NCBI RefSeq assembly: GCF_021155765.1 | Contig: NC_060110.1 | Location: forward strand, 20,978,001-21,042,000 | Direction: 5' to 3' | Origin: Diprion similis | Taxonomy: Eukaryota > Arthropoda > Insecta > Hymenoptera > Diprionidae | Length of the DNA: 64,000 bases | Part shown: positions 17,098-63,320 of the stretch, one piece after another | How the letters are laid out: each line of letters starts with the position of its first letter | Numbering within the stretch: the first letter of the stretch is position 1 | Translations under genes and position numbers: made by a program | The notes under the pieces: generated by a model | Databases searched by the model: none | What the model saw: the letters and a program-made list of their open reading frames with translations, nothing else | What the model was told of the DNA's origin: nothing

Positions 17098-18715
<1,618 letters not shown>

Positions 18716-34087: not shown

Positions 34088-37000
34088 CTAAGCACGTAAT
34101 CCGACGCTCTGCCAAAGCTGGGGAATTTTCGCGAGATTGTCATTGTTCTTGAAATCCGCGGTACGCGAACTCGCTGCACCGAGTCTCCTTCCGAGTTCCT
34201 TGGCCAGCTGCGTGTCCCATGCGGCTGCGATTTCGTACGCCGTAACACCTCCGTAGGTCAGGGCGTCGAGCTGGGGATTGCACTCTTGCAGCAGCAAGCT
34301 GGTGACACCCTTTCTCCGGCATTCGATCGCAAGGTGAAGAGCCGTCCTTCCACCTAGCCTCTCCTTAGCCTCGAGATCCGCACCGATGTTGATCAGGAAT
34401 CGTACGACTTCCGTATTTCCTGCTACAACTGCGGCGTGGAGGCAGGTTTCTCCTGTAATCATGAAAAAAAAGAGACGTTTAATGCTGCGCTCACTTCTTT
34501 CGATCCAACAATGGCTATTATAGTTTCAACTTGGGATTATATAAATTTATAAATTTCCCCCGTCATAATGGTGTAATTTCACGATTGCTGCACTTTTACA
34601 TGTCACGTATATGATGTATAAGTATACGTAAGATTTAACGGGAATGAATGTAATTTTAGTTTATGGTATTCGAGATAAGATTTCTCGGAGACGGGCGGCG
34701 CCGCGGCATCTTGCTTCTTTATTGTTACATTACATACCTAATCGGCTACATTATTTAAACAGGTTCGAAGCGGTTAATCCCCCCATTACTACACACACGT
34801 AAAGTCCAGAAAGCGTGTGGACATGGTCTTCCGCTTGTATCCCTCGTCAGGAGTATGCTTTGTTTTTTCAAGAATCAAGACAAATACATAAATAAAATGA
34901 AAACTCAACGACGGTTCGACGATTGCGAAGAAACGGTGCATTTGCGAGAAGTTACGGTGATTCCACTTCGGTCGAGGAAAGCCTCAGTTGACTGACTCAC
35001 GCGTGATATTTTTTTTTTTTCCCCACCTTTTCCGCAAACTTTATCATTTTTTAACTGCAATCGTCGGATTCCGGACCTGTTCGCCGTTTTAGTTGGCTCA
35101 CTTCACCGCGAGATAAACTCTATGTATGTGTAAGGTATACTATACATACAACGCAACGATACCACAATAAGGGAAACTCTTTTCAACCGCAAACCGAAGC
35201 ATGCTAACGTCACTTGACAATTCCGAAACATTCGCACGGGTTTGGTGAATCATGTCTTTTTTTTCTTTTTTTTTTTTTTTTGCAACACACTGCAAGGTCA
35301 TAGTCCCCAAGTGCGTTGGGTCAAAAAGTGCGACACGGATGCAATGTGGTAGATTAGAAGGCAAAAGTCCCGCTGTGCCACGCGGACACGTCCTACCTAC
35401 TTTTAGCAAAATCGCGTCACACTATTAGAGACACGCTTACACGTGTGCATGTGCATAATTGAATTCTAACTCCTCGAATATGGCACGATATTGTTTTTCT
35501 TCTATTATCCGCACAGCCGTTAACAATTCTCGTGTATAAGACAATGGTGATTCGATATCGTGCATTCCATGTAAATGATAAGCACGTGTTATATAGCTTT
35601 GCTTTTGCAGCTGCGGAGGAAAAACCGCGAGCAGAATACTGTCTCGTCAGTTTCCTGCGGCTGAGCAGAACAAGGCGTCTATGCTTAATGTAGGTGCTAT
35701 TGAATTCGAATAACACAATAACGTCACGCGTGGGGTTAATTCTCTCTAAGAATTACTGCAACAGGCGTTCATTCTCTCTTTTGTATCTCTCGATCGTTGC
35801 ATAACCGAAGAGCTCGGGCCGTGTTTGGTCGTTTTTCGAAAGTGGGCCGCCCCGAGGACGAGGCCTTCCGTTCGCGTATTTGCAACGAGTTGGCAGAGGC
35901 GAGTGCGGAGCGTTTCTATTGTTGGATGGATCGCGAAAAACAATGTCAGGTGAAGGACGCGAGCCTCGAATTGTCCGTATGGCTGTACGATGTGCAAATT
36001 GCAATGCGTGTGTTTCTCGGTTACTAAATCCTTCCGCAGCGCCTTGACCGGACGAAAATGGTGCCGCTGGTTATCTGGGTCGACGATTCGATTTGCACCT
36101 AGCTCTTAAATAAAAACAATTTAGCGCCAATCACGCTACACCTACCTGCGAAAAAGTACCAATATTCTAGTAACAGAGCGCGGCAGACGCCGAGGAAAAC
36201 GAGTTCGAATGTGTTTTGGAAAGCCAGGAATTGAGAGGTGGCCAAGTCACATGCCTGAGCAGGATATAGATAGAACTAGGAAGCTGCCGTGAGTCAGCTC
36301 CGTGGTATAAGGTCCAGCGGGATGCCGCGAGTTGAACTATCCTTGTCCCGATCAAAGCCTGCGGGCTAAACTTAACCGACACACGATGAGTTGCCACCAA
36401 CAGCGGCGTAGCTGCCCTACATAAAGCTGTTTTTTTTAAACAACCGTTTTATCATCCCGAGACAGTTGTCGTTCGTATTTTAAACCGTTGAAAGATATTT
36501 CGGGAAAATCATGTCTCCACCTGGGATTAGAAATAGGCGCTTTTAACAACACGGGACGAGGATCGATGCGGGATTGCAAAAGCTTCCCGGGGAACTCCGA
36601 GCTGCTTTGCGATCCTCGGTACTCGCAATTTTTTTTGTTTTTTCTTTTTTCAAAACGTTACAGGGGAATCCCCCAATCTTGTCGCCACTGTGGGGTTTCC
36701 CCGAGTCGAGAAGGGAACGCGCGGTGCGCAAATAGCCTGGCAGGTATTCCTGAATGTCAAAAACATCTGCTTTTGCTTCGACTTGAGCTGAGAATTAAAG
36801 GGGGGAAAAAAATTTGTGATGTAACAAATCCCGGATAAGAGGGTGCTCGGGAAAATTCCTAACCGGATACGCTTCCTGCCTTTTACAGGTGCAACAATCG
36901 CTCGGCCAACCGAGGAATAGAGACCGACACGTCGATGCCAGAGCAAAACTGCGATCAACGCGATTATCAATTTCGTTTTTACAGAGGTAATGAGACGCGA

Positions 37001-39498
37001 CGTTTATACCGCTTCATCGCGTCTCCATCATTAGCATCGTCCAAGTGCCCATGTATCAAAGTGCCAAGACGTTACGGCTTGCAATAATTTATCAGTTGTT
37101 CGTCTATCGAGATTCGACGGGGTCGAGGAAAGAATTGCGAAGCTCCGGTTTACTGACCTTCGTAATTGCGCTGCTCAAGGTCCTGCGGGATCGCGGGCGC
37201 CTGTCTTCCGGGTGTGAGATACATCCTTTCGCAGGCCGATATCGGCTCGGTCAACGCCCTGGCACAGGCCAAATCTCCGGATGCTGCGGCGAGATGGAGT
37301 GCCGTGTTTCCGTCTGAATTTCTCAGGCTCGGATCGGCTCCCGCCAAAATCAGCCGCCTTACTATGCTCGGCTGGTGAGTGTAAACAGCAAGGTGCAGCG
37401 GCGCCTGGCGCTTGCTGTTTAAGCAGTCGAAGAGCGAAGGATGAGGTGACATTCTTATCAGACTCATTGCGACTTCGTGGAAGCCCTGGACGATGGCGAT
37501 GTGTAGCTGTCTGTTGAACAAATTATTTTTATTTACTTACTACTCTTTGTTAAATGTCAAACGAGATGACGTTTGTGATGATTATATGGATTTGAGGGAA
37601 TGATCGTTTGCTTATAATATGAATTATTCGTGATAACAAGTGGCGTGAAGCAAACTACAGTTACCATTTGTTTAAAGTATTAACTAGTTTTACTACACGC
37701 GTAGTTCACAGATCTGAACTTGAAGAAGATGGTGATATCATCGTAGGGGTAATAATAAATACCGAACTAGAGGATCTGTAATCAACGAGTGAAGTATTGG
37801 AATTTAGATATCGAACCACCGCTGTTGAGACAGAGATCTGTAGATCTGTAGATAGTATTTTTAACTACTGCCACTCCGGTTGGGACCAACTTGTTCGTTA
37901 TCAACATTTCAAGACTTGACAAATTACTCATGGGTTTGACCAGGAATCTTATAAATTATTTCCTTCTTTTTTTTCTTTTTCCTTTTTTTAAATTACCCAT
38001 GGTTATAAAAGCGTTTATTATACACGGAATTAAACTGAGGTCATTTGTCAATGATACTGAAATCTGAAGTAAAGATCTTTCTCAATCAGGACATTGCTTG
38101 TACATTTGCGTTTGAAAAACACGACTTAATCTGTGGTTGTCGAGTGACGTGGGTTAAAAATTTGCAGCCGCAATTATACATTTCTGACAATTAATTAAGC
38201 GGGTAAGAGATGTTGGCGTGTATAAAGTAAAGGGAAATGAATAAAGTATAAAATTGCCCAAGTTATCTGCCAAAAATACTTTCTTGGGTACGCAATGGAC
38301 AAATGAGAGCTTGAATTTTCCTTATTGTCGTTTAAAAATGTCTAATCTGGGATCCCGAATCTGAAACACGCCTAAAAAATTAGCAATGTACCCGACCTCC
38401 ATACTAAATTTGTGAGTAGGTATCAGACCTGCGGATACATTATGTCTTAGCTATTTCGAGCCGACCTTCGAAACTGAGAAACAACTTTGAATCGAATATT
38501 TTCATCAGAAAATTATGGTCACTTTATGCTCGGTCACGCGTGGAAGAATTCAGGAAACCGCTACGCGCGTTGAAGATCGTTTTATAAATTAATCCATTAC
38601 GATGAAATCCTCGTTTCAAGAACAAACTACGAATCACTCGAAGAATTCCGGGATCATAAAGTAGAATGCGTGTCTGTTTCCTGTACCAGATTAAAAAGTA
38701 TTATGCGAATAAAATTTTCAACATCGCGAAAGGCCAACGGATCGAATAAACAACTTATCGAAAAACAAAAGGAATGTTTCAAGGTGATCGGACCATCCGC
38801 TTCGAAGTGATCCTTGTGAGATCATTCTGTAGGTAGTAATGTTTTTCATGACTCACGACACGACGCACGTAATGATCACTAAATATGTAGGCAGTTGTAG
38901 AATGTTTGTATATGTATAGTATAACAGGTATAATAACTCGTTAAAAAATGATTCAAGACAAAAAACGAGGACGAATACAGATTTGACCGATCGATTTAGA
39001 CTTTTGACGATGATGAGTCAGTGGAAGTAAGAGTACGAATCGATCAACTTACGTGTCGCCATCCTCGTCCTGGGAGTAGTAGAGCCTCCAAAGCTGCTGG
39101 GCCTGTTCAAGGTAGGAGTCTTCGTCAACCGGCGAAGAGTGATGCGGAATTCTGTGAGCGGTAACCGGAGCTAATTCGTCGGTTGGTTCCGCTTGAACCT
39201 TTCCTCTGAGGTGGTTTATGGTCACGTGTGTCAAGGTGAGTTGGCTCAGGGTATCGCTCAGACCCACTTCGACGACCCCGCTGTCGACCCTCATGTCTAC
39301 TTCCGGCTGCAGGTTCTTCCAGGACGAAATGTCGGATTGCTCTTCTCGACCGGTTTGGAGCCTGAGATCGGCAGGGTGTTCCTGGTCCGACTGCGGGGTG
39401 GTGATGTTCTGGCCTGACAGGAACCCCGAATCAATCTGAATCGCGGGGTCATCTGAAAAGTTTTTCTTCGTTTGGTTCGTCATCCGTGACTGCAACAT
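34088..39498 (-). CDS. cact: Cactus (IkB-family inhibitor of Dorsal/Rel), tandem copy A, complete, 3 coding exons
   Basis: The coding join is 39498-39053, 37510-37158 and 34452-34088, giving 387 aa. All junctions are GT-AG and in frame (Thr149 and Gly267 are split). The N-terminal region carries the degron DSGFLSG with Ser24 and Ser28, and Lys11/Lys12 just upstream as possible ubiquitin sites. A second DSG lies at 72-74. Six ankyrin repeats follow, at about 146-182, 183-215, 216-265 (with an insertion), 266-303, 304-336 and 337-357. In the family, this protein holds Dorsal/Dif-type Rel factors in the cytoplasm until Toll signalling causes its phosphorylation and degradation. The tail (358-387) is short and basic or neutral and ends WQSVGLRA. 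The acidic PEST-like segment seen in copy B is absent. An alternative start is Met6 (39483). Intron 2 contains kB-bearing blocks shared with copy B. Confidence 0.93.
36269..36398. promoter_or_regulatory. Conserved intronic block 1, copy A (AP-1-like and TCF-like motifs)
   Basis: This block matches 52863-52999 in cactus B in order and orientation. Shared anchors are GATAGAACTAGGAAG (15/15), GTGAGTCA (contains the AP-1 heptamer TGAGTCA), CCCGATCAAAGC (contains the TCF/Pangolin-like ATCAAAG), GCTAAAYTTAACC and GAGTTRSCACC. Spacing between anchors differs slightly, as expected for diverged paralogous sequence. A shared mobile repeat is the alternative. Confidence 0.6.
36683..36837. promoter_or_regulatory. 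Conserved intronic block 2, copy A (kB site plus E-box)
   Basis: This block matches 54770-54902. Anchors are CGCCACTGTGGGGTTTCCC (18/19 with copy B), GCGGTGCGCAAATAGC (16/16), TCAAAAACATCTGCT (15/15, containing E-box CATCTG) and GTGATGTAAC (10/10). The first anchor contains a perfect Rel/NF-kB decamer at 36692-36701. Two further kB decamers specific to copy A lie just outside, at 36589-36598 and 36663-36672. Confidence 0.65.
37511..39052 (-). other. cact: Cactus A intron 1
   Basis: This 1542-bp intron lies between the degron exon and ankyrin exon 1. The donor is ACAC|GTAAGTTG and the acceptor is TTCAACAG. The content is AT-rich and I see no gene or strong repeat in it. Confidence 0.85.
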
Positions 39499-40260
39499 CT
39501 CTCGGCTGTTTCTGCACTCGGTTCAGCAGTGACGCGAATTAAGAATGTACTTCAAGTAACGCGATAAGCGGCGACGTTTGCGGCCGCGAGATAATATTCC
39601 AATGACGCACTTCAACTTCGTTAATAAGTATGCTGTGTAGCGTGGATAAAATTATTATTATAATAGCAAATTGTCAGCTGATTGTGACCGGCACTTTTCA
39701 ACTGTTCAAATACGTTTTTATTTTCAACAATTGCGATTACTGTTCACTGTGCAACAGCTGGTGTTTAACGAGATGTTGCTTTTTCGCAATTAGTTTAACT
39801 GTGCAGAATTACCGAACAAAGAATTGCGGAGCTCTGAAAGGCAGTGTTCACTTTCACGATTGCAAAAGGCAACTGTAGTTTGCCGTTTTCGGAATAACTC
39901 GGAACGCGAATTTCCCCATTTCGCAACCCGTTTACACCAAGTGTACGGTTATCTCCTTATCATCCGACCGTTTGCGCGAGTCACACAATTCGATGCGGAA
40001 CGTTTGATGTTCAGTGTATATTTGCACGGTTTAGTGCTTGTCAATTTCCTCTATTAGCACCAAACTCCGGTTTGCAAAAGTCGTTTAGTGTACGAGCAAG
40101 TCTCTGAGCACGCTGATACTGAAGTGGCTTATGAGTCTAACTCCGCCTTCTTAAGTCGTACCACCGCAACTGACGTTTGGAAACGGACTGACTGAAGTTG
40201 TAAACACGAGCGAGACTCGACTCGAGCGTTTCTCCCCTCTAGGCAGCTGCCAAATGAAAC

Positions 40261-40270
40261 GGGAAAACCA
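40261..40270 (+). promoter_or_regulatory. Dorsal-type binding motif GGGAAAACCA upstream of cactus A
   Basis: This is an exact match to the Drosophila Dorsal consensus GGGWWWWCCM. It lies about 760 bp upstream of the cactus A start codon and about 220 bp from a candidate 5'-UTR exon donor at 40490. Confidence 0.4.
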
Positions 40271-40489
40271 TTTCTGAGTGCCAAGTCAGTACAATCCTCG
40301 GCTTTCAAGGCTCGTCGATGTACCCACATTCACATGGACACATGCGCCACACATCAGAGCTTGCCTGCTATGTTGAGTCCCTCCTTGTGTATCGCTTCGT
40401 ATGTTACGTCACGTTGCATTTCAATTGACACGTGGAAGTTGACAGATTTTACTGTCCCACAGATTTTTCTCCGTGAATGCGGAACTTAC

Positions 40490-40700
40490 TTTATATCTTG
40501 CACCCTTTTCTGAGACCTCCTCGATTCCGTTGGTTGTCGGATCGGTGCATGGAAACGACGCTGATTGAATTAGTTTTGATTGAATTGAGTATTCAAGCAT
40601 GTGTGCGAGGATCGTTAAAACTCGATCACACCCTGGGAAATGAGGAAAAAATTCCTCCGACATACATCGCGTTTATGAACGCAATCTGTTTACAATCAGC
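40490..40700 (-). other. cact: Candidate non-coding first exon of cactus A
   Basis: A good minus-strand donor (TATAAA|GTAAGTTCC) ends a possible exon at 40490, about 1 kb upstream of the cactus A ATG. A plausible acceptor lies just before the ATG exon (GAGTGCAG). The exon start and its use are inferred. Confidence 0.3.
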
Positions 40701-43700
40701 TTTCACCATCGGACAAGATTAAAGAGTTTTTTTAACCACCGAGCGGTTAATTCCAAGCGAATTAATGATTGCACCAGCCGATTTATGGGTGTTAGTGGCT
40801 AATTAAGGTGCAGAAAACTCTCTCTCTCGCAATCCCCCTTTTCAATTGTCTCTTTTAAAAATACCCAGCCATTGTTTACGACCAGAGTATTGCACGTCTA
40901 GCTGCGCAGTCAAGAGTGGGAACATGATGACGAACGCAGATAATTCGGGTGCTAAACGAAGAGTGAAAAGCTTACGTAGATCTCACCGCTTTGTACCGAG
41001 GCTCGTGATCAAGGTTTATTCAAGATTCAAAGTCCATCCGAAATACACAAACGCGTGTTGCAAATACAAGTTTAGAAGGTGATCGACATCGCGAGAAAAA
41101 AAATAAAAAAATATATATAGATATCAGACGAGAAATATGATTTCTCATATCTATACACTGCAGAGATACTTACAGGGTTATTCCGTTTGCTAAGCTCATG
41201 TTTGATCTGCTGTCAAAAATCAACAATCAAGGACTTTCCAAATCCCTGCGCTGCGTTGGTAGAGGCGCGATAATGACTCGGGATCACAGCGGGACTTCGT
41301 AGCTGTCCTACGAAGGGAAACAACTGAAATAGGGTCAATTGTACGACACAAAGGTGATAACCAATACCGATGATATTTTCCGAACGACTAACCACCGCTA
41401 CAGGCCATAATCTCTTGCACGATGCGAAAGTCTCGTCGTGTATATAAATAATGTATTTTGCGAGTGAATCGCAGTGGTGGTTGTAGTCCTAGTCATCCGA
41501 CTAGGCTTGTACACTTTCAACAATTTGTAAATAGGATAGGCGCCATGGATGTTGGGGGGGGGGGGGGGGCTACGCGATTTCTCCAAATTCAATTCACCTT
41601 CCCCCCTTCGTTCGCAGATAAATAATTCCCAACGAGGTCTTAGGTCTATAATCTCGGAAATACCGGGCGAGTGTAATACCTGCGTAAACACAGCACCAGC
41701 CTATCTATATCGTTATATTGTACAAGGTAAAAGATACGACTGATGCGGACATTTCGCTGCGGTATAAGTTGGTATTATATCGTGCATATATGCTTATCTC
41801 CAGAGCTTTGGGCAGGGCGGTTAGTTCGTTGTTAGTGCGCTAAATACACATTAGTAAGAAAAATTGAACGGAAAGAAAATTTCGAAATAACCATGCCAAA
41901 TTGCAGATGACGACAGTTTAGAGCTTAGCGCGATTCTAAGCTGATTGACTGGAAGGCTATGAGTCTTGCGATATTCCGGGATATACCTGCATAATGACTG
42001 GGGAAAAATTTCGCAAGTTCTGCGCCATCTTCTTGGCAAAAGTACAGCGAGTATCCATCGTCAACCTTGTTTTTATTACCCCGGACATAACGCAGCTCGC
42101 ACGAGTTTACAATCTGGATTAGTCATTGCATTTGAGGTAAACGCATTTTCCCATTAGCCCCCACCGAGCCAGGTAGTAAAACCATGGGAATTCTCAAGGG
42201 GTGGTTTCAAATTTTCAGCTACCTGGCAATGAGTCCCTTCCTGTTCGCCGTGCAACCGAGCAGAGTCTTATCTATAACGACAAAGACTTGTGGAGGGATT
42301 TGATTTATGCGCTATGAGAATCTTGCTGCGAATAGTTGTTCTGATCACCGAGGTTAATTGAACACAAGCCCACATCCATGCGCCGGACACGTGCTAAATA
42401 GGAAAGTTATGAACGTGCAATTCACACGTGAAAGAAAACTTCGCACTTACGTATTGCTCAGCTGGACTTACGTAACGTGAATAACCTATGATAGTTCGAT
42501 GGTCAGTTGCGAACCAGCGCGTCATTTATTTGCATTTATTGTCTTATTGATCGGATCGAGGAAACAATCGAGAGCCTGATGGATCGATGAAATTCGGGGA
42601 CCAAAATGACGAGCTTAAAAATAGTTTTACGCGTTTGGAACTTAGTTATACTATTTTCAGTTGTACACAGTTTATCATGTGCCTGAAACTATATGCTCCG
42701 TTCATAAATAGTTACGCTCGCGCGATACAAGCAGCTCGTAAGTTATGCGGACAGAGATGAATAGTCTGTATAACTCAACGCATTTGTGTCAAGAGCCCGT
42801 ATGAATTTGTCAGTTGTAATTCATTGTCGATTAATTATATTTCATTTTAATCCATGCGTGAATAGATATTCGTTTAATGTATGATGTTTTCGGGGAAACG
42901 TCCGCTTTCCTCATCCTCGATCGCTGCACGTAATGACCCATTGAATTTCACGTAAGCAGCAGCATCTTGAGTTGAATCGAAAGTCCATCATGTGTACGTG
43001 TTCGTTCAATAACGCAGCGTAATGTTTCTACTCCTCGTGACGCATTCAATCAAACCTCACAATCAGCTGTAAACCATTCGGAAAATCCAAACAGTGGTGA
43101 TGGGTTAATTTTATGATCCGCAGGACAGCGACGTTGTCTGCATAGAAAAATCACTTTGGTGCAGAATGGTGATTGACGAAAATGTTAAGGAGCCGGAAAG
43201 GCAGTTGAAAGAGGCCCAAATAACTGATCCTTTCACGGCTTTGCGGAAGACAGCACGTAGCGATAATGGCTAAACAATTGCCTTGAATGATTGAAAAATA
43301 GTTTTGTTAACCAGGCAACGTTATAAAAGTGGAAGAACATTATACTACACTCGAGTAGACTCAGCACTCTACAAAACAACGGTATATTTACAATTGGACA
43401 CATCAAGTACTCATGAATATAAGGTATTCTCAAACATACAACACAACGATGAGTCTTTGCGAGCAAACAATGTCTGAGTATATGTATAATAGACTCATTA
43501 GTCAGTTTTTGACTCAGAATCTAATCCTCGATTGAAATAAGAACACCTCGTTTGGTGAGTCGAGGCCACGTTGGAAGTAAACAGAGGTAGCTAAATAAGA
43601 ATCCTTGAACAATATTGAATCCTTCTTGATGAATAGCAAAGATATAGGTGAGAACTACAATTCTTGGATTCGTAGACGATTTTCCTCATATTAGAAAAAA

Positions 43701-46700
43701 AGGCTTTGATTTTGAAAATTCAAAGGCGGTATCGCCTCGTCAAACGACAATGGATCTGGCCGAGTTCATTGTAAAACGGATTGGAGCTCTACCGGTAATA
43801 ATGCATGCTCAACAGGTGCGTAGCCGTGAAATCAGCTCTATGAAACCCGGAAAAACCACCCCGGATTATGCTGGCGTAACTTTACGACGAAAGTATCATC
43901 GCAATGCGTAAGTCGAAACAAATGTGTACGTGTCGACTCGTGATAATGGTGATTCTTACTTTTACAATTAGCGTCAGATAAGGTGCGTCATTTCTTTTTT
44001 TTGTGGGCTTTTTATCTGCTGCACTGGTCATGCAGAATGGTATAATAAAAGTGCTAGTTGATCAAAAAGAAAAAAATACAACAACAATGAGCTAGGACGA
44101 GATAAAAACCCGTCAGGATTTCCCACGAACAATTTTTATCGCAATTGCTTTGTGATCGATTGATACACAAACATGAAACATCATTACGGAAATTCTTAAG
44201 TATAAAATTACATGTCGACGATGATAAGCAACGTGACGCGTCTGCATTGCATGACTCGAAACGGGTAAAAAGAGTGAAATTTCCCATCTGTATGTGGCAT
44301 TATCACGAGATAACGAAACTGAGAAACTTATAACTTGTAAAGTTAATCTATTCAAACGTCCGTTAAAAACCAGTAGCTGCTATATATATTCAAGTACACT
44401 TTTTCCTCCAAGGTTCTTTTTTTTCCTCGATAACTTTTTGCGATCGGATAATGAACGGTACGTGTGTGTATTACAGTACCTTCCGCATCATAATCAGCCT
44501 ACGTAAAACGGCGGTCTGGCCTTACTCGGGTCTTATATAGGTCTGTGTATTTAAACTTGCAGGCGCCAAACCAAGCTAGATGGGGAATTCCAACCGCTTT
44601 GTACACGTCTACCGCAGACTTTTAAGACCTCAGACCGATCTACTCCAGACTCTCTTTGAGAATAGAGATAGATCCATCTAGTGGCTGTGCATTTCATTGC
44701 TTGAAAAAGTAGACCATTCGACGTATGTTCAGAACGCACTTGACGTAACACACGTTACACGTGGCATTTGTCAGCGGTTCGTGTATGAAGGAAAAAATAC
44801 AAAGAAAAAAATATCACTTGTTTACAATTGTCGTACAACAAGTTTGACCGGAAAATCCAGTTCCATTTTTCCTAGGCATGTGCAGGCTCTTTACGTTTAA
44901 TGCAAAGCAAATCTGTAGCTCAACTCGTCTCATGCATTACATAAATTATCCATCAATTGTCGAGAAACTTACAGAAAGCATTTAGTAATTTTTACAATCT
45001 CGTTTCAAAGTGTTCTCCGTTTTTCATCGTATTCGTCTCTTTTTTCGCTGTTTTTTCTTAACGTTTTCCTAGAATCGAGCATAGATTCAACTATATGTTT
45101 GCGTCCTCGACCCCGTTTAGCAGTGAATTTTACCAGTTATTTGCATTTCTCAAATCATACTCGAGTACAACTTTTATCAAACAGCAAGCATTTCTTTGAT
45201 CGTATAAAATGTTTCTGACTCTGGGCACTTTCGGGCTATAAAATGTACGCGACTGGCGCCTAAAGCGATTCGAGTTTTTATAACAGCTTCTCGATGTAAG
45301 AATTTCCAAATATAGACGCAGAGGAACGGGCAGATAAGGACGTTCAAATATTTCCAATCCGAATGATCACGAATGACTACTGTTTACCCGCATAATTAAC
45401 ACATTTCGAGATACTGGTTTTAGCAAGTAGATTCATTGGTTATACATGCAGGCGTGGTCTACGATGTATTTTTTGATCGGTTGGATATAAAAATCGAGGA
45501 ATCCTAAAAGACTGATACAAGTTACGAAAAATATAACGCAATTCAACTGTGACTGGTCTGATCGAGTCAAATATGGCGAAACATTAATTTTTTAAACCAA
45601 AAAGACTTCTCTTGACGTGAAAAAATGAAGGTGAAGCAAAACGGATTTTATATACAAGTGCAGAAAAATACTTGTGGCAAATATTTTTTTTTTGCCATTG
45701 AATGAATGATCTATGTATATTCTCATTGTCAGTGACTGTGAAGATATGGCCTTGAACATACGTTAGAAGTGAGACAAATAGATATCTGAGCTAAGAATCT
45801 CGACGTTGTTTTCTCATGAATGATCAAGCAGGATGATCTCTGGGAGAGTGATCGAGTCCCTCCAAGTATTTCAACCTTTTTACTAGGAACCGACGATGGT
45901 GATCACCTGAAGGTCGCATTGCGATCCAAGAATCCCGTTATGGCGTGCACACAAGGTTGTTAGATAGATTGTAATTATTAATGGTTGTGATACTGGTTGT
46001 AGTTAACTTGTCACGGATTAGAAAGGACTTGGCGAGTTTTGAACTGCTGTATCGATAAATTTATTTCCTGCAGATTCACTCGCGCGAAAAATATTTTTCA
46101 AGGAATAGAACGCCGTACAAATTTCGTATGAAAAATATTTCTTTGCGTGTACGTCTTCGATAACTTTACTTTGATTTATTTATTTATTTATTTATTTTAA
46201 TAATAAATTAAGATGACGATTGAAAACGAAAGAAGTTATTGTAATGGGGAAGACGAGCGTTGAAATTTTTTCATCTAGTAGGAAAAACCGGTATTCCAGT
46301 AAATTAAAAACTAACTATAAAATGACTGGGGGTTTCCAGCGAGCAAGGTTTCTAAAAATAATTTGTGCACTTTCGTACGCTGATGAAAAGTAGGTAAGGA
46401 TGAAATAATTGCGCGGGAACATACGATTCTTAAAAGTAATCAGGAGTTGATAAATCAATGGGATAAACCAATTGAATTTACGATCATTTAATGCTGTCTT
46501 TCGTTTGAAAAACGAATAAAAAGCATATATGTTTCCTCCATTGCCACGACATGCAAGACTATAAAGTAAAATGAGATATATTTCAACGAACTTTAAGCAA
46601 TAAAAATAGCCGTTTCAATTTTGGGCTTACTTGAGAGTCAATGCGCGGATTGATAGTACTTTTGTTTACCAAATTTTCATTTAAATCGTATTAATATACT

Positions 46701-49255
46701 TAAATTGATATCCGGAATCTTAACAGGAGTTGATTCAAGATCCGTGCCCGATTTGTCAATTGTCAGTATCATGCAGCTCTTATTTTATGCCCTTTTTTTA
46801 CAGCAACGGCCACACCGCAAGTTCGGCGACCCTGTCGATGACTTGGCAAGGACGAAACCTGCGCGTGGCATCGCATGAACTTGACGAAAACTCGGTGGTT
46901 AAGCATATAAATCTCTAACGGTGGGAAATCAATTTCCGAAGTCGAAGCTCGGCGCTGTTATATTCGAGCACAATTACGTGCGGTTAGTGACTAATGAAAT
47001 GTAAAAAAGGTGCCGAGAAAGAAAAAAAAGGGGAAAAAAAAAAATTGCCCACCTTGCGGAACTTGTACTGACCACTGGTATTGAGACTTAATGAATAATT
47101 CAACTGGAAGGGTAAAAAAATTCGTACGGAAATAACGGCGATGAAATATTAAAGGCGTACGATTAAATCAAGATTCGAACTGGAATTTCTCTGATGCAAA
47201 CTGTGGCCTTATTTGCGTGCAGCGTGTGTACTACTTGGTCTACGCAAGTGAATTAAGCGCGTATCTAACCAGACAGAATTCATATCACGCGCACCATCAG
47301 TCTGAGCGCTCTGAACATGTGTAGAAGGTATTTTTATACCCGTGCCACCTTTTGCATGTGCGCGAGCAATTCGCGTTGCCGATTTTAGCGACTGGGCAGT
47401 CGGCTAACAGGAGGAGAGGGGCTGATAGCCTGCAGACGCGAACTTCCCCAAATAAGAATAATAAACGAGCGCAGACGACGATCTTCGCAGTTCTTGGAAT
47501 TCGAAACGCCACCTGACGACGAGAGGCAAAAGGAGGTATTTGCTCTGTATCGTATTAGCGCGGATGCCATAAAGAGAGCCGTTACAGATGTAAACACGTG
47601 AAGTTTGCCGCAGAGACTGCGAGTTGATTTTACAAGCTAACTTCTCGGTCTCCAGAACCCAGCCCGGGTCAAAATCATGCCTAAACTATTCCTGCCATCG
47701 TCGTGTTTGGCGCGAAATAGCGACCGGTGATTGACCAGCAGCGGAAATGAGCGCAGAGCCGAAATTAAATTGCAGGCGTTTCAACGGCGGCCATCTTTCC
47801 TCCGGCGTCACCGTTCGAATATTTTAAAACCACTTTTCTCCGTCACTTTCTACCTTCGAATAGGATTGAAAAATACTTTCATATCCTCAAGAATTCATGC
47901 TTCCACGATTTTTTCCGAGATTATAATGATGAGCGTACATGTTAATGTGGGTCATTCTCAATTGATAATATGAGGAGAAATTTCTTAATTTCCTGCGAAG
48001 ATCTCATGATCAATTAATCGATCTAGTTTCAACCCCCGAGTGAAGACTGAGGCATGTAAGTCACAGTGAAAGTTAAGATCCTGGATCTAAAACATCGCAT
48101 CTTTATACCACTGGCGATGATCATCGGCGTTTAATACGGCCGATGACAGCAGTGAGTGAGATGATAGACGGATCGATGAATCGATGAAAAATTCGTATAG
48201 GTGATACAGGTGGTTACCTACGTGTGTGTAACAGTATAAACAGGTATATCCGCATATTTCGCATAATACTATGATAATTTACACATGCGTTGATTAATAA
48301 CCGTCGATATGTATAAAACGGAGTTGGCACATGCATATATATATATACACACGTGACGATGCCACAACAACCATAATAATCAAGTATATACACGTACACT
48401 TCTGATCTTCAGGATGAAAATATTTAATAAATCTGTTTACATCAATCTTCTATTAACAACAATTGGATACTTGCTTACGAAATTGCCAATTGACGTCATT
48501 GAACGTGTCTTACATTTATTGCTCGGCAAGCAATTGGGCAAGGCACATTCGTCAAGATGGACAGATGCTGGATGTGATTGCTGTTACTTTTTCCATAGAC
48601 AGCTGCTTCTACACCAAACCTTCTTGTCCTTTGATATCAATAAGTTTATTTTCATGCTATTGTGAATCTCAAAACTTGAGGTCTCTTCGTTGCCTAATAT
48701 CGTTGGCATTCGAACGATAAGCTGATAACGTCAGTGTGGTTGGTTGTAACTTGAAGAAAAGCCTCGAACTCGAGTTTAAACAAGTCAATTTCATTGGGTT
48801 TTTTTTATTCTACTGACGTGTTCATTCCGGCACTGAACACTTATGTTTTTTAATGTTACAAATATTATTTGCATAGAATGACAATTTTGTAACCCATAAA
48901 ATTTACCGTTCGTAACTGAAAATTCCTTTTCAAGTAAAACCAACTGCATATTTCAATCGACAAGAATATTTAATAATCGCAAAAACATGGAGTATTTATT
49001 ACTTGTAATTCTGTTTGATTTTCCTTAAATTCTTTAAATTCTATCTAAATATAGCCAATTTAATTTTTGGTTATTAGGAACGTTCTTTTGAATCGAAAAG
49101 TTTAGCTACGTGAATCAGAAATTTCTTAACATGAAGTGATATGTTAGTTAGATGACCAGAAATGAAATAACGACAAATCTCGAGTATGCTTTTTTTTTTT
49201 GTCTTTTCTTAAGAACGTTTGTTTATTACTAAAATATAATCGTTTCCACTAAAAC

Positions 49256-49286
<31 letters not shown>

Positions 49287-49562
49287 GTATAACACAAGTA
49301 ATAATAATTAATAATTTGTTAGCTAATTTCCTAATAGGGTAAAACGTGGCTATGTACATACCGAGGAGAGGTTTTAACACGTGAAAAATATTGTATATAG
49401 ATATAGAGGGATGAAAAGATTCAGAGAGAGGTACATCTAGATATAGGTACAGGGAAAGTGTCTTTCCGTCACGAGGATTGTTTATATAACAATTAACTAT
49501 AATAAGTTAATCTATAGTATTTTTTGATGCAGGGCTTAGCCTATAGTATATATATATATTTA

Positions 49563-49574
49563 TACATACATACA

Positions 49575-49628
<54 letters not shown>
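49563..49628 (+). repeat. (TACA)n/(TA)n compound microsatellite
   Basis: About ten TACA units pass directly into a TA array. Confidence 0.95.
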
Positions 49629-49633
<5 letters not shown>

Positions 49634-50598
49634 GATATTTTACATATCATCATATTCATAATATAATAATAGCAATATAAATAAATGATAATTAATTTGT
49701 GTAGTCACGCTATAGTCTCTCTCTCAATATTCGTTTTATACTATACATGTAGGTATATTGAACCATGTGTTATGAATTTGTTTAATTTCTCGTGTGAGTG
49801 TATGCATGTTCTTGCACAACACAAGAATATATATAATAATATAATATATTTTTTTCTGTTTCTTTTAAATCGTATTTCGAAACGATATTGAATTCATTTA
49901 TCGTATTGTAACTATAACGCCATTTTACATACCTATTTATGTATACATAGATATTTATACACCGTTGATCCAGAATTGTTGAAGAGGTCACAGACGTGAA
50001 GGTTTATCGCAAACTTGACTCGATCATTTCTTTTTATTCCAGAAATTTATCGTCAGTATACCGAATAATTTTTCAACTAATATGCAACATTCGATCCGTA
50101 CTCGCAGAGTTTGACGGAAAAGTAAATTTAAGAAAGTGAAAAAAGGTAGGAAAAATGACACAAACAAGACGACGAACCGGTATAAAAATTAACGAAAGAA
50201 ATCGTCCGCAGGATCGCTTTCAATTATTCAATTATAAAAATTTCAATAATTCGCATTAAATAAAATTTAACGACAATCGAGTCGTCACACGCTTTAGGAT
50301 CACGTTAAAAGGGATAAGGAAAAACTCGTTATTTTGTAGCTTTAGGATTACCTGAAATTAATCAAGCCGTTAATAAGTCATAAAAAAAACTCCAGATATT
50401 GAAAAAATTCAGCTTCTTCAGTTATTCTAAAAGTACAAAACAGTAAATTTTTCTACAAGCCAACGTTACTAACTCCAGCCTCATGCTTTGGGGTTATCCG
50501 GTACGCGCGAACCTCTTCGATTAATTCCATTTCACAGATATGTTTCGTTTCATCTCGTCATTTCATTAACATTGTCGTTTCGTTCAAATTTTCGAACA

Positions 50599-50630
<32 letters not shown>

Positions 50631-50853
50631 CGTCGACCGCAATAAATATATCGTTCCATTTTTCCCATGGATCCATCCATTATCAAGGAATCGTTCCCTA
50701 CAATTCTCGGACAGGTTGTCCGCGGCAAGGATTCGCCGCAGTCTCCGAGGGCGGTTAATAATAATTTCGTCTCCAAAAAATGTCCGGAGCTATTGCGATG
50801 AGGGACGAGAGGGAAACGAGACGTCGCGTCCAGATTCCCGGTCTTCTCCTTCC

Positions 50854-51278
50854 CTAGGTTCTAAGTCCGACGCCCTGCCACGTGTGGTTTCCATTGTTCA
50901 CGTTGTACATGGGACTCTTCGACTCTCCCTCGTTCTCCGAGTCATCGTTCATGTCCGAGTCGTTGTCGTCCTCGGAGTCCGACTCCGGAGGCGGCTGCGG
51001 TTTCGCACCAAGTCTTACGAGTTCTCTCGCAAGCTCGAGGTCGCCGCAGGCGGCTATTTGGTAGGCGGTTATACCGGCGTAAGTAAGGGCGTCAAGACAG
51101 GGTGCGCACTCCTGGAGAAGAAACTTCGTCACCGATGCCCGATGTCGCTCGATCGCCAGATGAAGCGCCGTTCTTCCCGCGAGCCATTCGCCAGCTTCCA
51201 AATCCGCCCCGTTCCGCAGAAGGAGTCTGACCAGTTCAACGTGCCCCCCTATCACCGCCGAGTGAAGACAGGTTTGTC
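50854..51278 (-). CDS. cact: Cactus (IkB-family), tandem copy B: terminal coding exon only
   Basis: The exon is open from the acceptor TTATCTTCCAG (exon starts at 51278, the same phase as copy A exon 3) to the TAG at 50854-50856. It encodes ankyrin repeats 4-6 (GQTCLHSAV..., GRTALHLAI..., GITAYQIAA...), collinear with copy A. A Pro-rich stretch and an acidic Ser/Asp/Glu tail of about 25 residues follow, with several casein-kinase-2-like SDSE/SDxxDD sites, typical of the cactus/IkB PEST region. It ends WQGVGLRT, so the closing W-Q-x-V-G-L-R motif is shared by both copies. No degron or ankyrin 1-3 exon was found between 51.3 and 64 kb on this strand. They presumably lie beyond the right edge, or the exon is an orphan. 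The open frame and clean acceptor argue for a live gene. Confidence 0.88.
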
Positions 51279-51378
51279 CTGGAAGATAAAAAATTGCGAC
51301 ATTGAGTTGGTTAGTTAGTTGCGATTCTAGATATGTATTGTAAATGGGCTGCGATCTGTAATCTAGTTATAAAATCAC

Positions 51379-51607
51379 TTTTTACGGCATAGGCATTGAA
51401 AAGTCCACTTTTTGTGGCAGTTTTCGTTCCGTAAAGTGACGCTTTATACGGCAGCGAACAAAGTTTACGGAATAAAGTCTTTATTCCGCAGTTTTGATGC
51501 GCAGTTCGAAGTGCGCATCCCAAACTGGCGAATAAAGTAGCTTCGTCGAACAGATCGCGACATAACCTCACTCTTCGTTCTGCTTTTCAATGCCCATACC
51601 GTAAAAA
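51379..51607. mobile_element. Foldback/MITE-like element with 25-bp terminal inverted repeats
   Basis: The termini at 51379-51403 and 51583-51607 are inverted copies matching at 23 of 25 bases and begin TTTTTACGG. Inside are a near-perfect hairpin (51479-51537, with arms GATGCGCA/TGCGCATC around a TTCGAA centre) and a 21-bp palindrome (51468-51488). No coding capacity and no clear target-site duplication are seen. The element begins 100 bp upstream of the cactus B exon. Confidence 0.6.
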
Positions 51608-51617
51608 ATATTGTATA

Positions 51618-51749
51618 TGGCATGCCCGTAAACTGTTTTTTGGCTCGGATAATTTCAGTACTCGTTTCCTGCTCGCTTCCGGCTCGCCTTCAGCTCGTCC
51701 TGAAATCTTTATCCTTGCCAAAAAAAACAGGCGGTTTACGGGCATGCCA
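51618..51749. repeat. Long imperfect hairpin with 16-bp perfect outer arms
   Basis: TGGCATGCCCGTAAAC at 51618-51633 is perfectly inverted at 51734-51749. Pairing continues inward through TGTTTTTTGGC/GCCAAAAAAAACA and GGATAATTTCAG/CTGAAATCTTTATCC, giving arms of about 40-50 bp. The loop holds three 11-bp repeats around GCTCG. It could be a second MITE or a hairpin RNA source. Confidence 0.6.
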
Positions 51750-52862
51750 CATAAAATGCTATTGCAGTGTAATTATAACGGAATTTGCCATTTTTTGTAC
51801 ATGAAATTCAAATACATTGTCATATCGAACATACATAATATAAAAGATTGTGAAAATCATTGTACATTATCAGATCGACATAAACCTGCACATATATTGA
51901 CTAAATTGCAATTACAGTTGTGCACTTTGCATTTTCGTCTTTGATCGTGAACGTTAAAAGATAATTTTCATACAATCCAAAGACCAGATAGAAGATTTGA
52001 ATTTCAAAAGGTTATCGACACGTATATGTGTCGATTTACGATCGTCACAAGTAGGTACAAATAATCGAGCGGACATTATAACCGTTTATTCGCGTATGTA
52101 ATACCTTATACAGATGTACAGGTATATATATACTTTTTAAACGCCACGTATTGCAAGTGTGTTAATTTTGTGTCTAAACATTGATGAAAATACAACAGCA
52201 AACATATTTTACCGCATCTTTTTGTGTCATAGATACATACGTATAAATTAAATTAATTATCATACGCATGCGAATTTGATATTTTCGTTAATTTTTTTTT
52301 TTTTTTTTTTTTTTTCTCCCCTCCATTAGAAACGTTATACCAAAGCAATATTAAATATAAAACAAATATATGTATATACATGTCAAGCTATCCACATTAC
52401 TTATATATCACAGCCATACAGTAAGAATGACTTGACCTAGTATAATAATTGCATATACATATATATACATAAAATCGGATAGTGTGTCGTTTCCGCAAAC
52501 CGAGTAAATAAATAAATAAATCATATTTTATATCTTCCGCCCGTATTTACATATATTTAAATAAATTCTTTTTCATCTTCGGTCACGCGGTTTTCACAGA
52601 CGTTCCGCGGAGCGATGGCCGATGACGCGTGTGTGAATTTTTTCCTACGCATGTGTACGAAGTGCGAGAGGGAATGCCTGCGCATGTGTGAGTATATAAA
52701 TAGAGTCAGGCAAGTATAATAATTCAGAGCGTGTGCAAGAGGCACGCGTTTCTAGTTTGTTGAGATAGAAGAAGACGCAAGACGTCAGTCACATGCCGCC
52801 TTAACATCATCACACATCGGCAGATAATATAAGGCAAACCTGAAAAACACACACAGATAAAA

Positions 52863-52999
52863 GATAGAACTAGGAAGAATTAAGAACGGGCATAAGGTAG
52901 GTGAGTCACCGTCGGAGAGGTTTGGCTGGCTGCCTGCGGTCCAAACTAGGCTCGCCCCGATCAAAGCGCCGCTAAATTTAACCACCCTGAGTTAGCACC
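52863..52999. promoter_or_regulatory. Conserved intronic block 1, copy B
   Basis: This is the partner of 36269-36398 and lies 1.6 kb upstream of the cactus B terminal exon (copy A: 1.8 kb). The AP-1-like TGAGTCA is at 52902-52908 and the TCF-like core lies within 52956-52967. A conceptual minus-strand translation shows weak similarity between the two blocks (VKFS..ALIG), but stops and frame shifts make coding unlikely. Confidence 0.6.
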
Positions 53000-53290
53000 G
53001 GTCGCGAATAGCATTGGCGTAAACGATGGAAAATTCTTCGATCCGTTAGCCCTTTATTTTGACAATTTTAACGTTTTATTTTAAAATTTTATTTCCCATC
53101 GCGCCTAAAGTAAAAACCATTTTTCCCCTGAAATGAAATTTTCACATACTGAAGTGAAAAAATCTCATTCCATTTCATGGAATTTCCTATACTTTATACA
53201 TTTTATCCTCCGGCTTGACCACCAATTATTGTAGTTTTATTTTATCATTCCCTGACTCGATTTTAATGTATCTTTTTTGCTTAGTTATTA

Positions 53291-53314
53291 CCCCCCCCCC
53301 CCCCCCCCCCCCCC
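53291..53314 (+). repeat. 24-bp homopolymer C run
   Basis: Uninterrupted C, equivalent to a G run on the transcribed (minus) orientation of cactus B. Confidence 0.9.
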
Positions 53315-54242
53315 ACATATTTCAAACGTATGGGGTGACTTGAGTGTTGAGTGGTAATTTGCCGTTCGTTTCGCGACGACCTTGAGCAAACAACAAACTC
53401 CAAGTTTATCGCGGTGATTATAAAATAAGAGTAGATAGTACTTGTATATGTGTGTGTACTTGGGTAGTATATATATGTATAATGTACGCGTATATAGCAG
53501 CAAGTGTGCGTCACGGAGAATTGGCGCGATATGTTTCTGCATATACATATACATATATAATAAAAATAAAAAAATAAAAAAAAAAAATAATAATAATTTG
53601 TATATAACAGTTTGGGAAAATCCCGCGGCACGGAGACTTCACACTGATTATATACAACGAGATGTATATGCTATAGCTCTGCATGTTATATGTATTACCC
53701 AGGCATACATGCGGTGCAAAAAAATAGCATGTTATTTTCTTCCCACACTTTAATTATAGAGACAGTTATATGTAGGTATATTGCAGTCCGTTACATTGAA
53801 TCACACTGCACATGTGACTATAATTTAATAAGTATTAAATGTTCGTTATTTTTGTTACTGCATGCCAATTTCGATCTTTTTGTTTAAAATTAATAGAATA
53901 AGGCTAATAGAATTAGAAGGAAGGAAATATCTAATAAATCTTTCCGACGAGAGCTAAAGAAAAAATTAATATATATGTACATGTATATCAAATGCGCACG
54001 AAATAGAAGAAAAGTGTTCAAAATTTTCCTATGTACATCCTACATATGTTATACACATACAAATTGGTGAAAAATACGTGGAAACGATCGTAGCGCGGTG
54101 GATAATAAAGACGTTCGATATACACTGATTGGAATGACGCTGTTATTCCACTTTAGGTGGTTTAATTAACTGTCTATAATACAGCCTAATGAAACGGTCA
54201 GTAGCTGCATTTTCTGTGTGTATATACAATTATACACAATAC

Positions 54243-54248
<6 letters not shown>

Positions 54249-54277
<29 letters not shown>

Positions 54278-54282
54278 TGTAT
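54249..54282 (+). repeat. (TATG)n microsatellite
   Basis: About eight tetranucleotide units flanked by TA runs. Confidence 0.95.
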
Positions 54283-54769
54283 ATATTGCAAAAGAATTTG
54301 TCTATGACGCAAATGAAAACAAATATCTTAACTCAGCGCAAGATATGTCTAATATATTATATATTATATATATATATATATATATGTATACATATATATA
54401 CGAAAGCTGTTATCAATAACGAGAAGCACTTAATAAATACTGATCGACTGATCACGGGATCCCATGTGTTATAACATATTAATCATATGTGTTAGTTTAT
54501 GTGTATGAAAATAAATTAATTGGTCAATAATTTACGATTTAAAATTACGTAAAAAAAAGAAACGAACGCGTCGTTAGTCATTATAGATTCCGAGTAGGTA
54601 AACGAGACGTTATTTTCGACTCTATTATTACCTAGTTAATCTGTTTTTTTTTTTCATTTACCTGCACTTTAACATTTTTTTTTTTTTTTTTTTTTTCTTC
54701 TCAAGCATTTTTGTTTCTCTTGCTTTCGACACGCCGAATCTCGAGTCGAGGGCATCCTCTCGACGTCTG

Positions 54770-54902
54770 CGCCAATGTGGGGTTTCCCGTGGCGAGAATG
54801 CCGCGGTGCGCAAATAGCTGAGTGAGTATTTTTAAAATATCAAAAACATCTGCTACAGGGGGCTGAATATCTCTACCCGCTTCGTGATGTAACGGAATCC
54901 GG
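54770..54902. promoter_or_regulatory. Conserved intronic block 2, copy B (kB site plus E-box)
   Basis: This is the partner of 36683-36837. The kB decamer GGGGTTTCCC is at 54779-54788, the 16-bp anchor GCGGTGCGCAAATAGC at 54803-54818, the E-box anchor at 54840-54854 and GTGATGTAAC at 54884-54893. It stands out as a GC-richer island in AT-rich DNA. Confidence 0.65.
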
Positions 54903-55215
54903 TGGCGAACGCGTGCCTATACACGCTCGCGTTGCAAATTTGTGCGTATTTCAGCGTTGCACGAAGGCGAATAATCGGAAAATACACTGATTAGTCACCA
55001 CAGAGTAAAAGGTCTTCGGATTTTTTCCTTTACCGTTAAATTCTTTCCTTTTTTTTTTAAATTATACTTTATTAACTTGAAAATAAAATTTCTGTATATT
55101 ATACATCCTTTGCCCCGCCATTTATTTTTGGTTTCATAGAAAAAGGAATAACGAGGAATTACATAAGTATTCGTTTCATCAGCTGTCATCCTGTTTTTCC
55201 CCTCTTAAATTGAAA

Positions 55216-55224
55216 CTCTCTCTC

Positions 55225-55263
<39 letters not shown>
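55216..55263 (+). repeat. (CT)n microsatellite
   Basis: CT dinucleotides with a single CA interruption. Confidence 0.95.
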
Positions 55264-55265
<2 letters not shown>

Positions 55266-55989
55266 AATCGCGGTAGTTCCATTCTTTGTTGTCACGGTAT
55301 TTAACTTATCGGATAACTCGTGCGTTTGTGGTGGAAAAATTTAATCGACCTATACCTCCTTTCACGTTGTAAAATTACGTCAAACAAATTGCCCCCACCC
55401 CACCGATTGGCCAAGTCACGACAGTGCAATATTTTCGCTGCGCTTTTGCATTCTTCGTATAACACAGACTCGATTCGGTATTCCCTCGCTACAAAAAAAG
55501 AAATCACTTCAATATAAGATATAAAACTTTTGGATAATATAACAACTCGCATATGTATACATACATATTACAATCTTTCGCAATAAGATAAAAAGAACCG
55601 GGAAAGATATAACAAGGTTTCAATAAATATATTATTCATGTACACATGTAAACCTTGTACAGATACTTGATACTACGTGTTATATGAGTTATATATATAT
55701 ATATGATTTACACTACTTGAGATAACGCAAATGATGGAAAAACCCCGGTGACAAATATACGGATTAAATTTCTTACACACACACATACACACACACGCAG
55801 AGACATAGACACGTATTTATGCATAAGCATATATGTATCAAAAGAATGATCTCCGAATAATGGAATATAATTCGTGGATGATAATACATATAATGTATTA
55901 TATACCTATATCTCTGCGCGATAGACAGATAAACGTAATTCAAATCGAGCAATAACTTTTACGACTATAACAAATGATATGCGATTTTA

Positions 55990-56039
<50 letters not shown>

Positions 56040-56560
56040 TTTTTTTTGTTTTTCCGCAAAACGATAAGTTACAACATTATTAATCTCACAGACGGATAAA
56101 AATTTTACCCCCAAATGGTAATTTCAACACTTTTGTTTTCGCAATCCCTCATTTATCGCAGCAACGTATGAAGAAGATAAAGTAAAATCCCTCGGATTCA
56201 AATAACATATACATATTGTACGCATGAACACTGTTTCGACTTTTCTAAGTTACAACACCCGCAAGATTGTTCATTTTTCTCCTAGCGATGCCATCTGCAA
56301 TATACATATAACGATATAAATAATTTATATATATATATTATTGTTTATCGATCACGCGTCAGAATTTTCCGCCACATATCTAATACAAAATACGTTATTC
56401 AATTATTCTTACGTTTTGTCGTAGAATTTTGTTCATCACACTTTTCGCCATCTTTTTTTATGATGTTATACATCGGATCGATTTTCTGGTCTACTTATTA
56501 CGATATTTATGAAAAAAAAAATTAATAAAAAAATATGTGTGTGTGCGTGCGTGTGAGAAA

Positions 56561-56566
<6 letters not shown>

Positions 56567-56618
<52 letters not shown>
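56567..56618 (+). repeat. (GA)n microsatellite
   Basis: About 26 GA units, preceded by a short GT/GC patch. GA arrays can bind GAGA-type factors, but this one may simply be neutral. Confidence 0.95.

Positions 56619-56621
<3 letters not shown>

Positions 56622-58358: not shown

Positions 58359-58389
<31 letters not shown>

Positions 58390-59055: not shown

Positions 59056-59058
<3 letters not shown>

Positions 59059-59098
<40 letters not shown>
59059..59098 (+). repeat. (TA)n microsatellite
   Basis: About 20 TA units. Similar arrays lie at 50602-50630, 56000-56034, 57031-57056 and 63091-63124. Confidence 0.95.

Positions 59099-59104
<6 letters not shown>

Positions 59105-63087: not shown

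Positions 63088-63128
<41 letters not shown>

Positions 63129-63318: not shown

Positions 63319-63320
<2 letters not shown>

What the first reader, a model, noticed from the sequence alone, without database searches (positions are those of the whole stretch)
36683..54902. kB-plus-E-box block conserved in the last introns of both cactus copies
Block 2 of copy A (36683-36837) and of copy B (54770-54902) share four anchors in the same order and orientation: an 18/19 anchor containing GGGGTTTCCC, a 16/16 anchor, a 15/15 anchor containing E-box CATCTG, and GTGATGTAAC. The surrounding intron sequence does not align by eye. A Rel site preserved in the intron of a Rel inhibitor fits a negative-feedback enhancer kept through gene duplication. 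Pairing with an E-box recalls Dorsal-Twist enhancers. Known: cactus/IkB genes are Rel targets in flies and vertebrates. Inferred: enhancer function here.
Basis: partly seen in the sequence, partly recalled or inferred. Interest (0 to 1): 0.82.

Follow-up and report, generated by a model that had tools for sequence, protein, structure and literature searches.

The report
Shared control element in cactus introns
Two neighbouring insect genes that restrain the NF-kB immune and patterning switch share a short non-coding stretch, with an NF-kB-type binding site, in the same intron; it looks like a feedback switch kept since the gene doubled, although no experiment or sister species was available to prove it.

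Summary
Block 2 aligns between the two cactus copies over 103 columns (80 identical), in the same order and orientation. A whole-genome search (269 Mb) with either copy finds only these two places (E 3e-8). Both lie in the homologous phase-1 last intron of neighbouring cactus/IkB genes; the exon that proves this for copy B lies outside the window, at 67387-67739. Four-fold sites agree at only 33 of 81, so the block has been constrained.

A second collinear block (36263-36410 / 52856-53021) also exceeds every null run. The other non-coding parts tested do not. The cactus region is rich in kB sites: 12 in 39.9 kb against 2 in 58 kb of flanks. Coding, RNA-structure and repeat readings found no support.

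Best reading: a Rel-responsive intronic enhancer giving negative feedback on both paralogs. The kind is known: cactus is described as a Dorsal target in holometabolous insects, with a kB cluster near Nasonia cact. The Dorsal-Twist analogy is weak: the E-box is a common hexamer 68-72 bp away. Sister-species conservation could not be tested.

The parts
36664..36771 (+). Block 2, copy A, core aligned part (kB, 17-bp GC-rich anchor, 15-bp E-box anchor)
   Evidence: 80 of 103 aligned columns identical with 54750-54854; two places found in the genome
54750..54854 (+). Block 2, copy B, core aligned part
36692..36701 (+). kB decamer GGGGTTTCCC, copy A
54779..54788 (+). kB decamer GGGGTTTCCC, copy B
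36663..36673 (+). Second kB site GGGGAATCCCC in copy A, 29 bp before the first (start to start); its minus strand fits the Relish consensus GGGGATTYYY; the aligned bases of copy B form no kB site
   Evidence: consensus from a figure legend of PMC9496462
36721..36736 (+). 16-bp anchor GCGGTGCGCAAATAGC, copy A (C/EBP-like core by recall)
   Evidence: exact at two places in the genome
54803..54818 (+). 16-bp anchor, copy B
36757..36771 (+). 15-bp anchor TCAAAAACATCTGCT with CATCTG, copy A
   Evidence: four exact places in the genome, two of them here
54840..54854 (+). 15-bp anchor with CATCTG, copy B
36816..36825 (+). Fourth anchor GTGATGTAAC, copy A (weaker support)
54884..54893 (+). Fourth anchor GTGATGTAAC, copy B; a further copy in the same intron lies beyond the window at 65261
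36263..36410 (+). Second conserved intronic block, copy A, with TGAGTCA (AP-1-like by recall) and GATCAAAG (TCF-like by recall)
   Evidence: 109 of 136 aligned columns identical, score 39 against null maximum 28; not found genome-wide
52856..53021 (+). Second conserved intronic block, copy B
34453..37157 (-). Last intron of cactus copy A (phase 1)
   Evidence: splice sites read
51279..64000 (-). Last intron of cactus copy B; runs on past the window to 67386 (phase 1)
37158..37510 (-). Copy A exon with the first ankyrin repeats
34088..34452 (-). Copy A last coding exon (ankyrin repeats, stop)
39053..39498 (-). Copy A exon with the DSGFLS degron-like motif (start codon assumed)
50854..51278 (-). 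Copy B last coding exon
61795..61805 (+). kB site GGGGATTCCCC in the copy B intron, outside the blocks
53614..53624 (+). kB-like site GGGAAAATCCC in the copy B intron, outside the blocks

Best explanation
Block 2 is the core of an intronic enhancer that existed before the duplication of cactus and was kept in both neighbouring copies. Rel dimers (Dorsal/Dif-type and/or Relish) freed by Toll or Imd signalling bind the kB site, together with other factors on the neighbouring anchors, and raise transcription of both IkB genes, which then trap Rel again: negative feedback. Shown: homologous introns, conservation beyond chance, two places only in the genome search, kB enrichment. Inferred: enhancer activity, Rel binding, feedback, and the names of the partner factors.
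For: Two blocks above all null runs, in the last intron and in none of the other three non-coding parts tested. Two places in the genome. Same intron position and phase in both genes. Heavily diverged coding DNA: 33 of 81 four-fold sites alike (26% expected from composition), dS 1.8 (YN00) to 3.2 (NG86), against 80 of 103 columns alike in the block. 12 GGGRNNYYCC sites in 39.9 kb of cactus region against 2 in 58 kb of flanks, p 7e-4; the reversed motif gives 0 and 3. Both last introns exceed order-2 Markov expectation: 3 against 0.3 and 5 against 0.5. The ankyrin domain matches IkB-alpha in one stretch along nearly its whole length (1nfi, 1ikn). Literature: PMC4423117 (passages) says cact is activated by the Dorsal gradient in all known holometabolous insects and that Nasonia cact has a nearby cluster of Dorsal sites; PMC8883978 (section 3.11) reports ventral-midline expression of Nv-cact1 and, weaker, Nv-cact2, read as possible Toll feedback.
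Against: No chromatin, reporter or binding data. No second species. The kB decamer is 10 of the 80 identical bases, so the other anchors could drive the conservation. GGGGTTTCCC does not fit the Relish consensus GGGGATTYYY, and its fit to Dorsal sites is by recall; the more Dorsal-like motif GGGWWWWYCC is hardly denser here (5 in 39.9 kb against 4 in 58 kb; reversed 2 and 3). The second kB site of copy A has no kB partner at the aligned position in copy B. Four of the five kB sites in the copy B intron lie outside the blocks. (DNA search with the second block of A, E up to 1) did not find its B partner genome-wide. [quoted passage not shown]
Confidence: 0.6

Rival explanations
1. A conserved intronic enhancer of both cactus genes that serves basal, maternal or tissue-specific expression through the bZIP-, E-box- or TCF-like anchors, with the kB decamer playing little or no Rel role.
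For: The longest exact runs (17 and 15 bp) are not the kB site; the second block has AP-1-like and TCF-like sites and no kB site.
Against: GGGRNNYYCC sites are enriched over the locus while the reversed motif is not; published Toll/Dorsal control of cactus in other insects.
Confidence: 0.25
2. An internal promoter, untranslated alternative exon or non-coding RNA shared by the two genes.
For: Sequence and orientation kept in both introns; open frames cross both copies and one minus-strand frame pair scores 57; copy A folds at z -2.1 on the gene strand.
Against: Ten weak Rfam matches in 28000-64000, all below gathering score, none overlapping a block; fold z-score of copy B only -1.1 on the gene strand, and 0.2 and -0.1 on the other strand; the DNA alignment has gaps of 4 and 1 bases inside the block, and the shared ATG frame of copy A stops after five residues in copy B.
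Confidence: 0.08
3. A dispersed repeat, a recent insertion or gene conversion between the copies.
For: The copies are neighbours on one strand.
Against: Two places in the genome; the 8 of 209 genomic GGGGTTTCCC places that were fetched and tested show no further similarity to the block (scores 10 to 14 against 45.5); 22% divergence with indels.
Confidence: 0.04
4. A Dorsal-Twist-type dorsoventral enhancer in the strict sense, with linked Dorsal and Twist sites.
For: kB and CATCTG both conserved; cactus has a ventral stripe in Nasonia and a twist-like reporter in Drosophila (Sandmann 2007 as cited in PMC4423117; not read).
Against: CATCTG is common (39 in 104 kb), starts 72 and 68 bp from the kB site, and is not the preferred Twist hexamer by recall.
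Confidence: 0.15

Closest known systems
Toll/Dorsal feedback control of zygotic cactus (Drosophila, Tribolium, Nasonia)
   Same: Rel sites at a cactus gene; feedback logic. PMC4423117 states that cact is activated by the Dorsal gradient in all known holometabolous insects and that Nasonia has a Dorsal-site cluster near cact (passages seen)
   Different: Here one aligned module sits in the last intron of two paralogs; activity untested
Duplicated conserved non-coding elements kept by paralogs (vertebrate dCNEs; search listing only)
   Same: Non-coding sequence alignable between paralogs beside heavily diverged coding DNA
   Different: About 105 bp at 78% identity in an insect; PMC4217690 (abstract) says regulatory sequences have diverged past recognition by standard alignment even within Diptera
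NFKBIA (IkB-alpha) autoregulation by kB sites in vertebrates (recalled)
   Same: IkB gene induced by the factor it inhibits
   Different: Vertebrate sites are in the promoter (recalled); here in an intron

Membership tests
cactus/IkB gene | IkB-type ankyrin domain and N-terminal DSGxxS degron | tested here: met
   IkB-alpha (1nfi, 1ikn) matches residues 2-205 of the 210-residue spliced copy A query in one stretch; four longer ankyrin-repeat proteins score higher but by repeated partial matches, and p100 and Bcl3 also match; DSGFLS in both copies
kB / Rel site | Matches GGGRNNYYCC (recalled consensus) | tested here: met
   both copies
kB / Rel site | Matches Relish consensus GGGGATTYYY | tested here: not met
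   GGGGTTTCCC fails on both strands; the neighbouring site of copy A at 36663 meets it (consensus from PMC9496462)
kB / Rel site | Bound by a Rel protein | not testable with these tools
   needs ChIP or EMSA
Rel-driven IkB feedback enhancer | kB sites enriched at the IkB gene | tested here: met
   12 in 39.9 kb against 2 in 58 kb; the Dorsal-like GGGWWWWYCC alone is not clearly enriched, 5 against 4
Rel-driven IkB feedback enhancer | Drives induction dependent on the kB site | not testable with these tools
   reporter needed
Dorsal-Twist enhancer | Dorsal site closely linked to a Twist-type E-box | tested here: not met
   E-box starts 72 and 68 bp away and is a common hexamer; preferred spacing and hexamer are recalled, so this is a weak failure
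Paralogous conserved non-coding element | Non-coding, alignable between paralogs above chance, not a repeat | tested here: met
Paralogous conserved non-coding element | Conserved in other species | not testable with these tools
   no other insect genome held; an exact-pattern scan of viral contigs and genome contigs (viral, bacterial, archaeal) gave 0, which does not bear on insects

The most novel reading that the evidence does not exclude
The last intron of cactus carries an old two-part Rel / AP-1 / TCF-like feedback module that predates the gene's duplication and is still readable by plain alignment, so that both IkB paralogs answer to the same signal and the module could be traced by sequence across insect lineages.
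Probability: 0.25. Interest if true: 0.65.

Novelty: new member of a known kind. Interest (0 to 1): 0.45.

Why it matters
Feedback of Rel on its own inhibitor is an old feature of innate immunity and of dorsoventral patterning, but the insect enhancers that carry it are hard to follow because regulatory DNA diverges fast. A block that still aligns between two diverged paralogs names about 105 bp, and one decamer, that can be tested directly, and gives a probe for looking in other insects.

Tried and rejected
Repeat family: rejected (8 of 209 other decamer places, all from contig C1). Four further loci chosen for a near or exact 16- or 15-mer score 15 to 19.5 (L031, L032, L035, L036). With up to 2 mismatches the 16-mer has 53 places genome-wide, fewer than its reversed control (131), so near-matches are not enriched. 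Coding exon: rejected after 18 frame pairs; the best pair scores 57 on the minus strand, but gaps of 4 and 1 bases break the frame. Structured RNA: not supported. tRNA: none. Shared module elsewhere: a kB site followed at 8-38 bp by TGCGCAAA occurs at 3 places genome-wide (reversed control 0), two of them the cactus blocks; the third, on C8 (L040), scores only 11 and 10 against the block. About one is expected by chance (my own estimate, no call). Conservation elsewhere in the genes: intron 1, upstream and 3' flank give nothing above the maximum of 40 shuffles each. The third-best intron alignment (23.0) is within null and was dropped. Other cactus copies: one search gave 48 matches at E up to 0.1; only the two genes here are close (100% and 62% identity), the next is 39% over 61 residues. 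Scan of non-insect collections: 0. A first dS estimate (34 of 82 four-fold sites, dS 1.5-2.7) included a few intron codons by mistake and is replaced. Intron limits used (34470-37160, 51288-67381) differ by up to 17 bases from the splice sites later read.

Full report
What was checked. The window is part of a 269 Mb genome in 60 contigs, without names. Alignment extends over A 36664-36771 and B 54750-54854, with 80 identical of 103 aligned columns and longest exact runs of 17, 15 and 10 bp. A search of the whole genome with either block returns two places, itself and the other copy, at E 3e-8; that tool warns that very common words are skipped. The 16-mer occurs exactly twice in the genome, the 15-mer four times, the kB decamer 209 times against 106 for its reversed control.

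Chance. Intron A against intron B gives local scores of 45.5 (block 2) and 39.0 (a second block, 36263-36410 / 52856-53021). 160 Markov-shuffled introns gave a mean of 21.0 and a maximum of 28; 21 tiles of flanking DNA (overlapping, both strands and reversed) gave at most 26. Extrapolated Gumbel p values are 1.4e-8 and 1.4e-6. The third alignment (23.0) is within null. Both blocks are collinear and in the same orientation; they lie 253 bp apart in A and 1728 bp apart in B. Against this, a genome-wide DNA search with the A copy of the second block found only itself at E up to 1. The fourth anchor GTGATGTAAC is weaker: 23 of 3000 real-intron draws and 8 of 3000 shuffles reach its local score.

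Gene context. Both genes are on the minus strand. Copy A has a degron exon, a first ankyrin exon (37158-37510) and a last ankyrin exon ending at 34088. Copy B has the same plan, but its first ankyrin exon (67387-67739) and degron exon lie past the window end. Both last introns interrupt the same glycine codon in phase 1: A 34453-37157, 2.7 kb; B 51279-67386, 16.1 kb. The spliced ankyrin part of copy A matches IkB-alpha in one stretch over residues 2-205 of 210; long ankyrin-repeat proteins score higher by repeated partial matches. Over 237 aligned codons 144 residues are identical; dS is 3.2 (NG86) or 1.8 (YN00); 33 of 81 four-fold sites agree, where base composition alone gives 26%. Synonymous sites are thus near saturation, not fully random, and the block at 78% has been under constraint. 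This assumes no local gene conversion, for which 22% divergence with indels gives no sign.

Where conservation lies. Intron 1, the upstream region and the 3' flank were tested in the same way; none exceeds the maximum of its 40 shuffles. Of the non-coding parts tested, only the last intron carries sequence shared above chance.

kB content. GGGRNNYYCC sites, overlaps merged: 12 in 39.9 kb from the end of copy A to 5.4 kb above copy B; 2 in 58 kb of flanks (binomial p 7e-4). The reversed motif gives 0 and 3 in the same stretches. A further site at 30337, in the 3' flank of A, was outside both sets. Last intron A has 3 against 0.3 expected, last intron B 5 against 0.5 (order-2 Markov). A more Dorsal-like motif, GGGWWWWYCC, is hardly denser: 5 in the cactus stretches and 4 in the flanks, with 2 and 3 for its reverse. 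Copy A has a second kB site 29 bp before the shared one that fits the Relish consensus printed in PMC9496462 (figure legend seen); the aligned bases of B do not form a kB site. The shared decamer itself does not fit that consensus.

What it is not. The block alignment has gaps of 4 and 1 bases, so no reading frame is kept; the best of 18 frame pairs scores 57 on the minus strand, and the ATG frame shared on that strand stops after five residues in copy B. Ten weak Rfam matches in 28000-64000 are all below gathering score and none overlaps a block. Folding z-scores are unremarkable; the strongest, -2.1 in copy A, drops to -1.1 in copy B. Eight other genomic GGGGTTTCCC loci, of 209 places, share nothing beyond the decamer.

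Literature. [quoted passage not shown] PMC8883978 (section 3.11 read) reports three Nasonia cact paralogs, with ventral-midline expression of cact1 and, weaker, cact2, read as possible Toll feedback; [quoted passage not shown] PMC4968023 (passages) also describes a narrow early ventral stripe for Nv-cactus. Against generality, PMC3995682 (passages) describes an anterior, not ventral, pattern of honeybee cact. PMC6115922 (one figure legend) names three honeybee Cactus proteins. PMC4217690 (abstract) says regulatory sequences have diverged past recognition by standard alignment even within Diptera. None of the listings showed a title or abstract start describing an intronic element shared by cactus paralogs; the listings are partial and most subscription papers are not held.

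Verdict. A conserved intronic cis-regulatory element is very likely. That it is a Rel-responsive feedback enhancer is the best reading (0.6). The Dorsal-Twist label is weak: CATCTG occurs 39 times in 104 kb and starts 72 and 68 bp from the kB site. C/EBP-, AP-1- and TCF-like labels for the other anchors are recalled consensus matches, not tests.

Noticed in passing
36263-36410 and 52856-53021: Second block shared by the two last introns, with aligned TGAGTCA (AP-1-like) and GATCAAAG (TCF-like); no kB site.
   Followed up: yes
17258-18619 (-): Large exon of a Smad gene (MH1 and most of MH2; looks like Mad, by recall) about 15 kb from the end of cactus copy A. It looked like an intronless retrocopy at first, but the MH2 match stops at position 147 of 174, so it is more likely an ordinary exon. 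Three other MH1 places are in the genome.
   Followed up: partly
25847-27394 (-): 515-codon open frame with TPR and STI1/HOP domains (Hsp70-Hsp90 organising protein by recall) in one piece, between the Smad exon and cactus copy A.
   Followed up: no
61795, 63680 in the window; 66381, 70000, 70429 beyond it: Further strong kB sites (GGGGATTCCCC, GGGGAATCCCC, GGGAAAACCCC among them) in the copy B intron and upstream of copy B, outside the conserved blocks.
   Followed up: partly
L015 (G000:C6:18803230-18806415): Single 308-codon ankyrin frame, third-best match to the cactus exon (39% over 61 residues); possibly a Relish or Bcl3-like ankyrin region.
   Followed up: no
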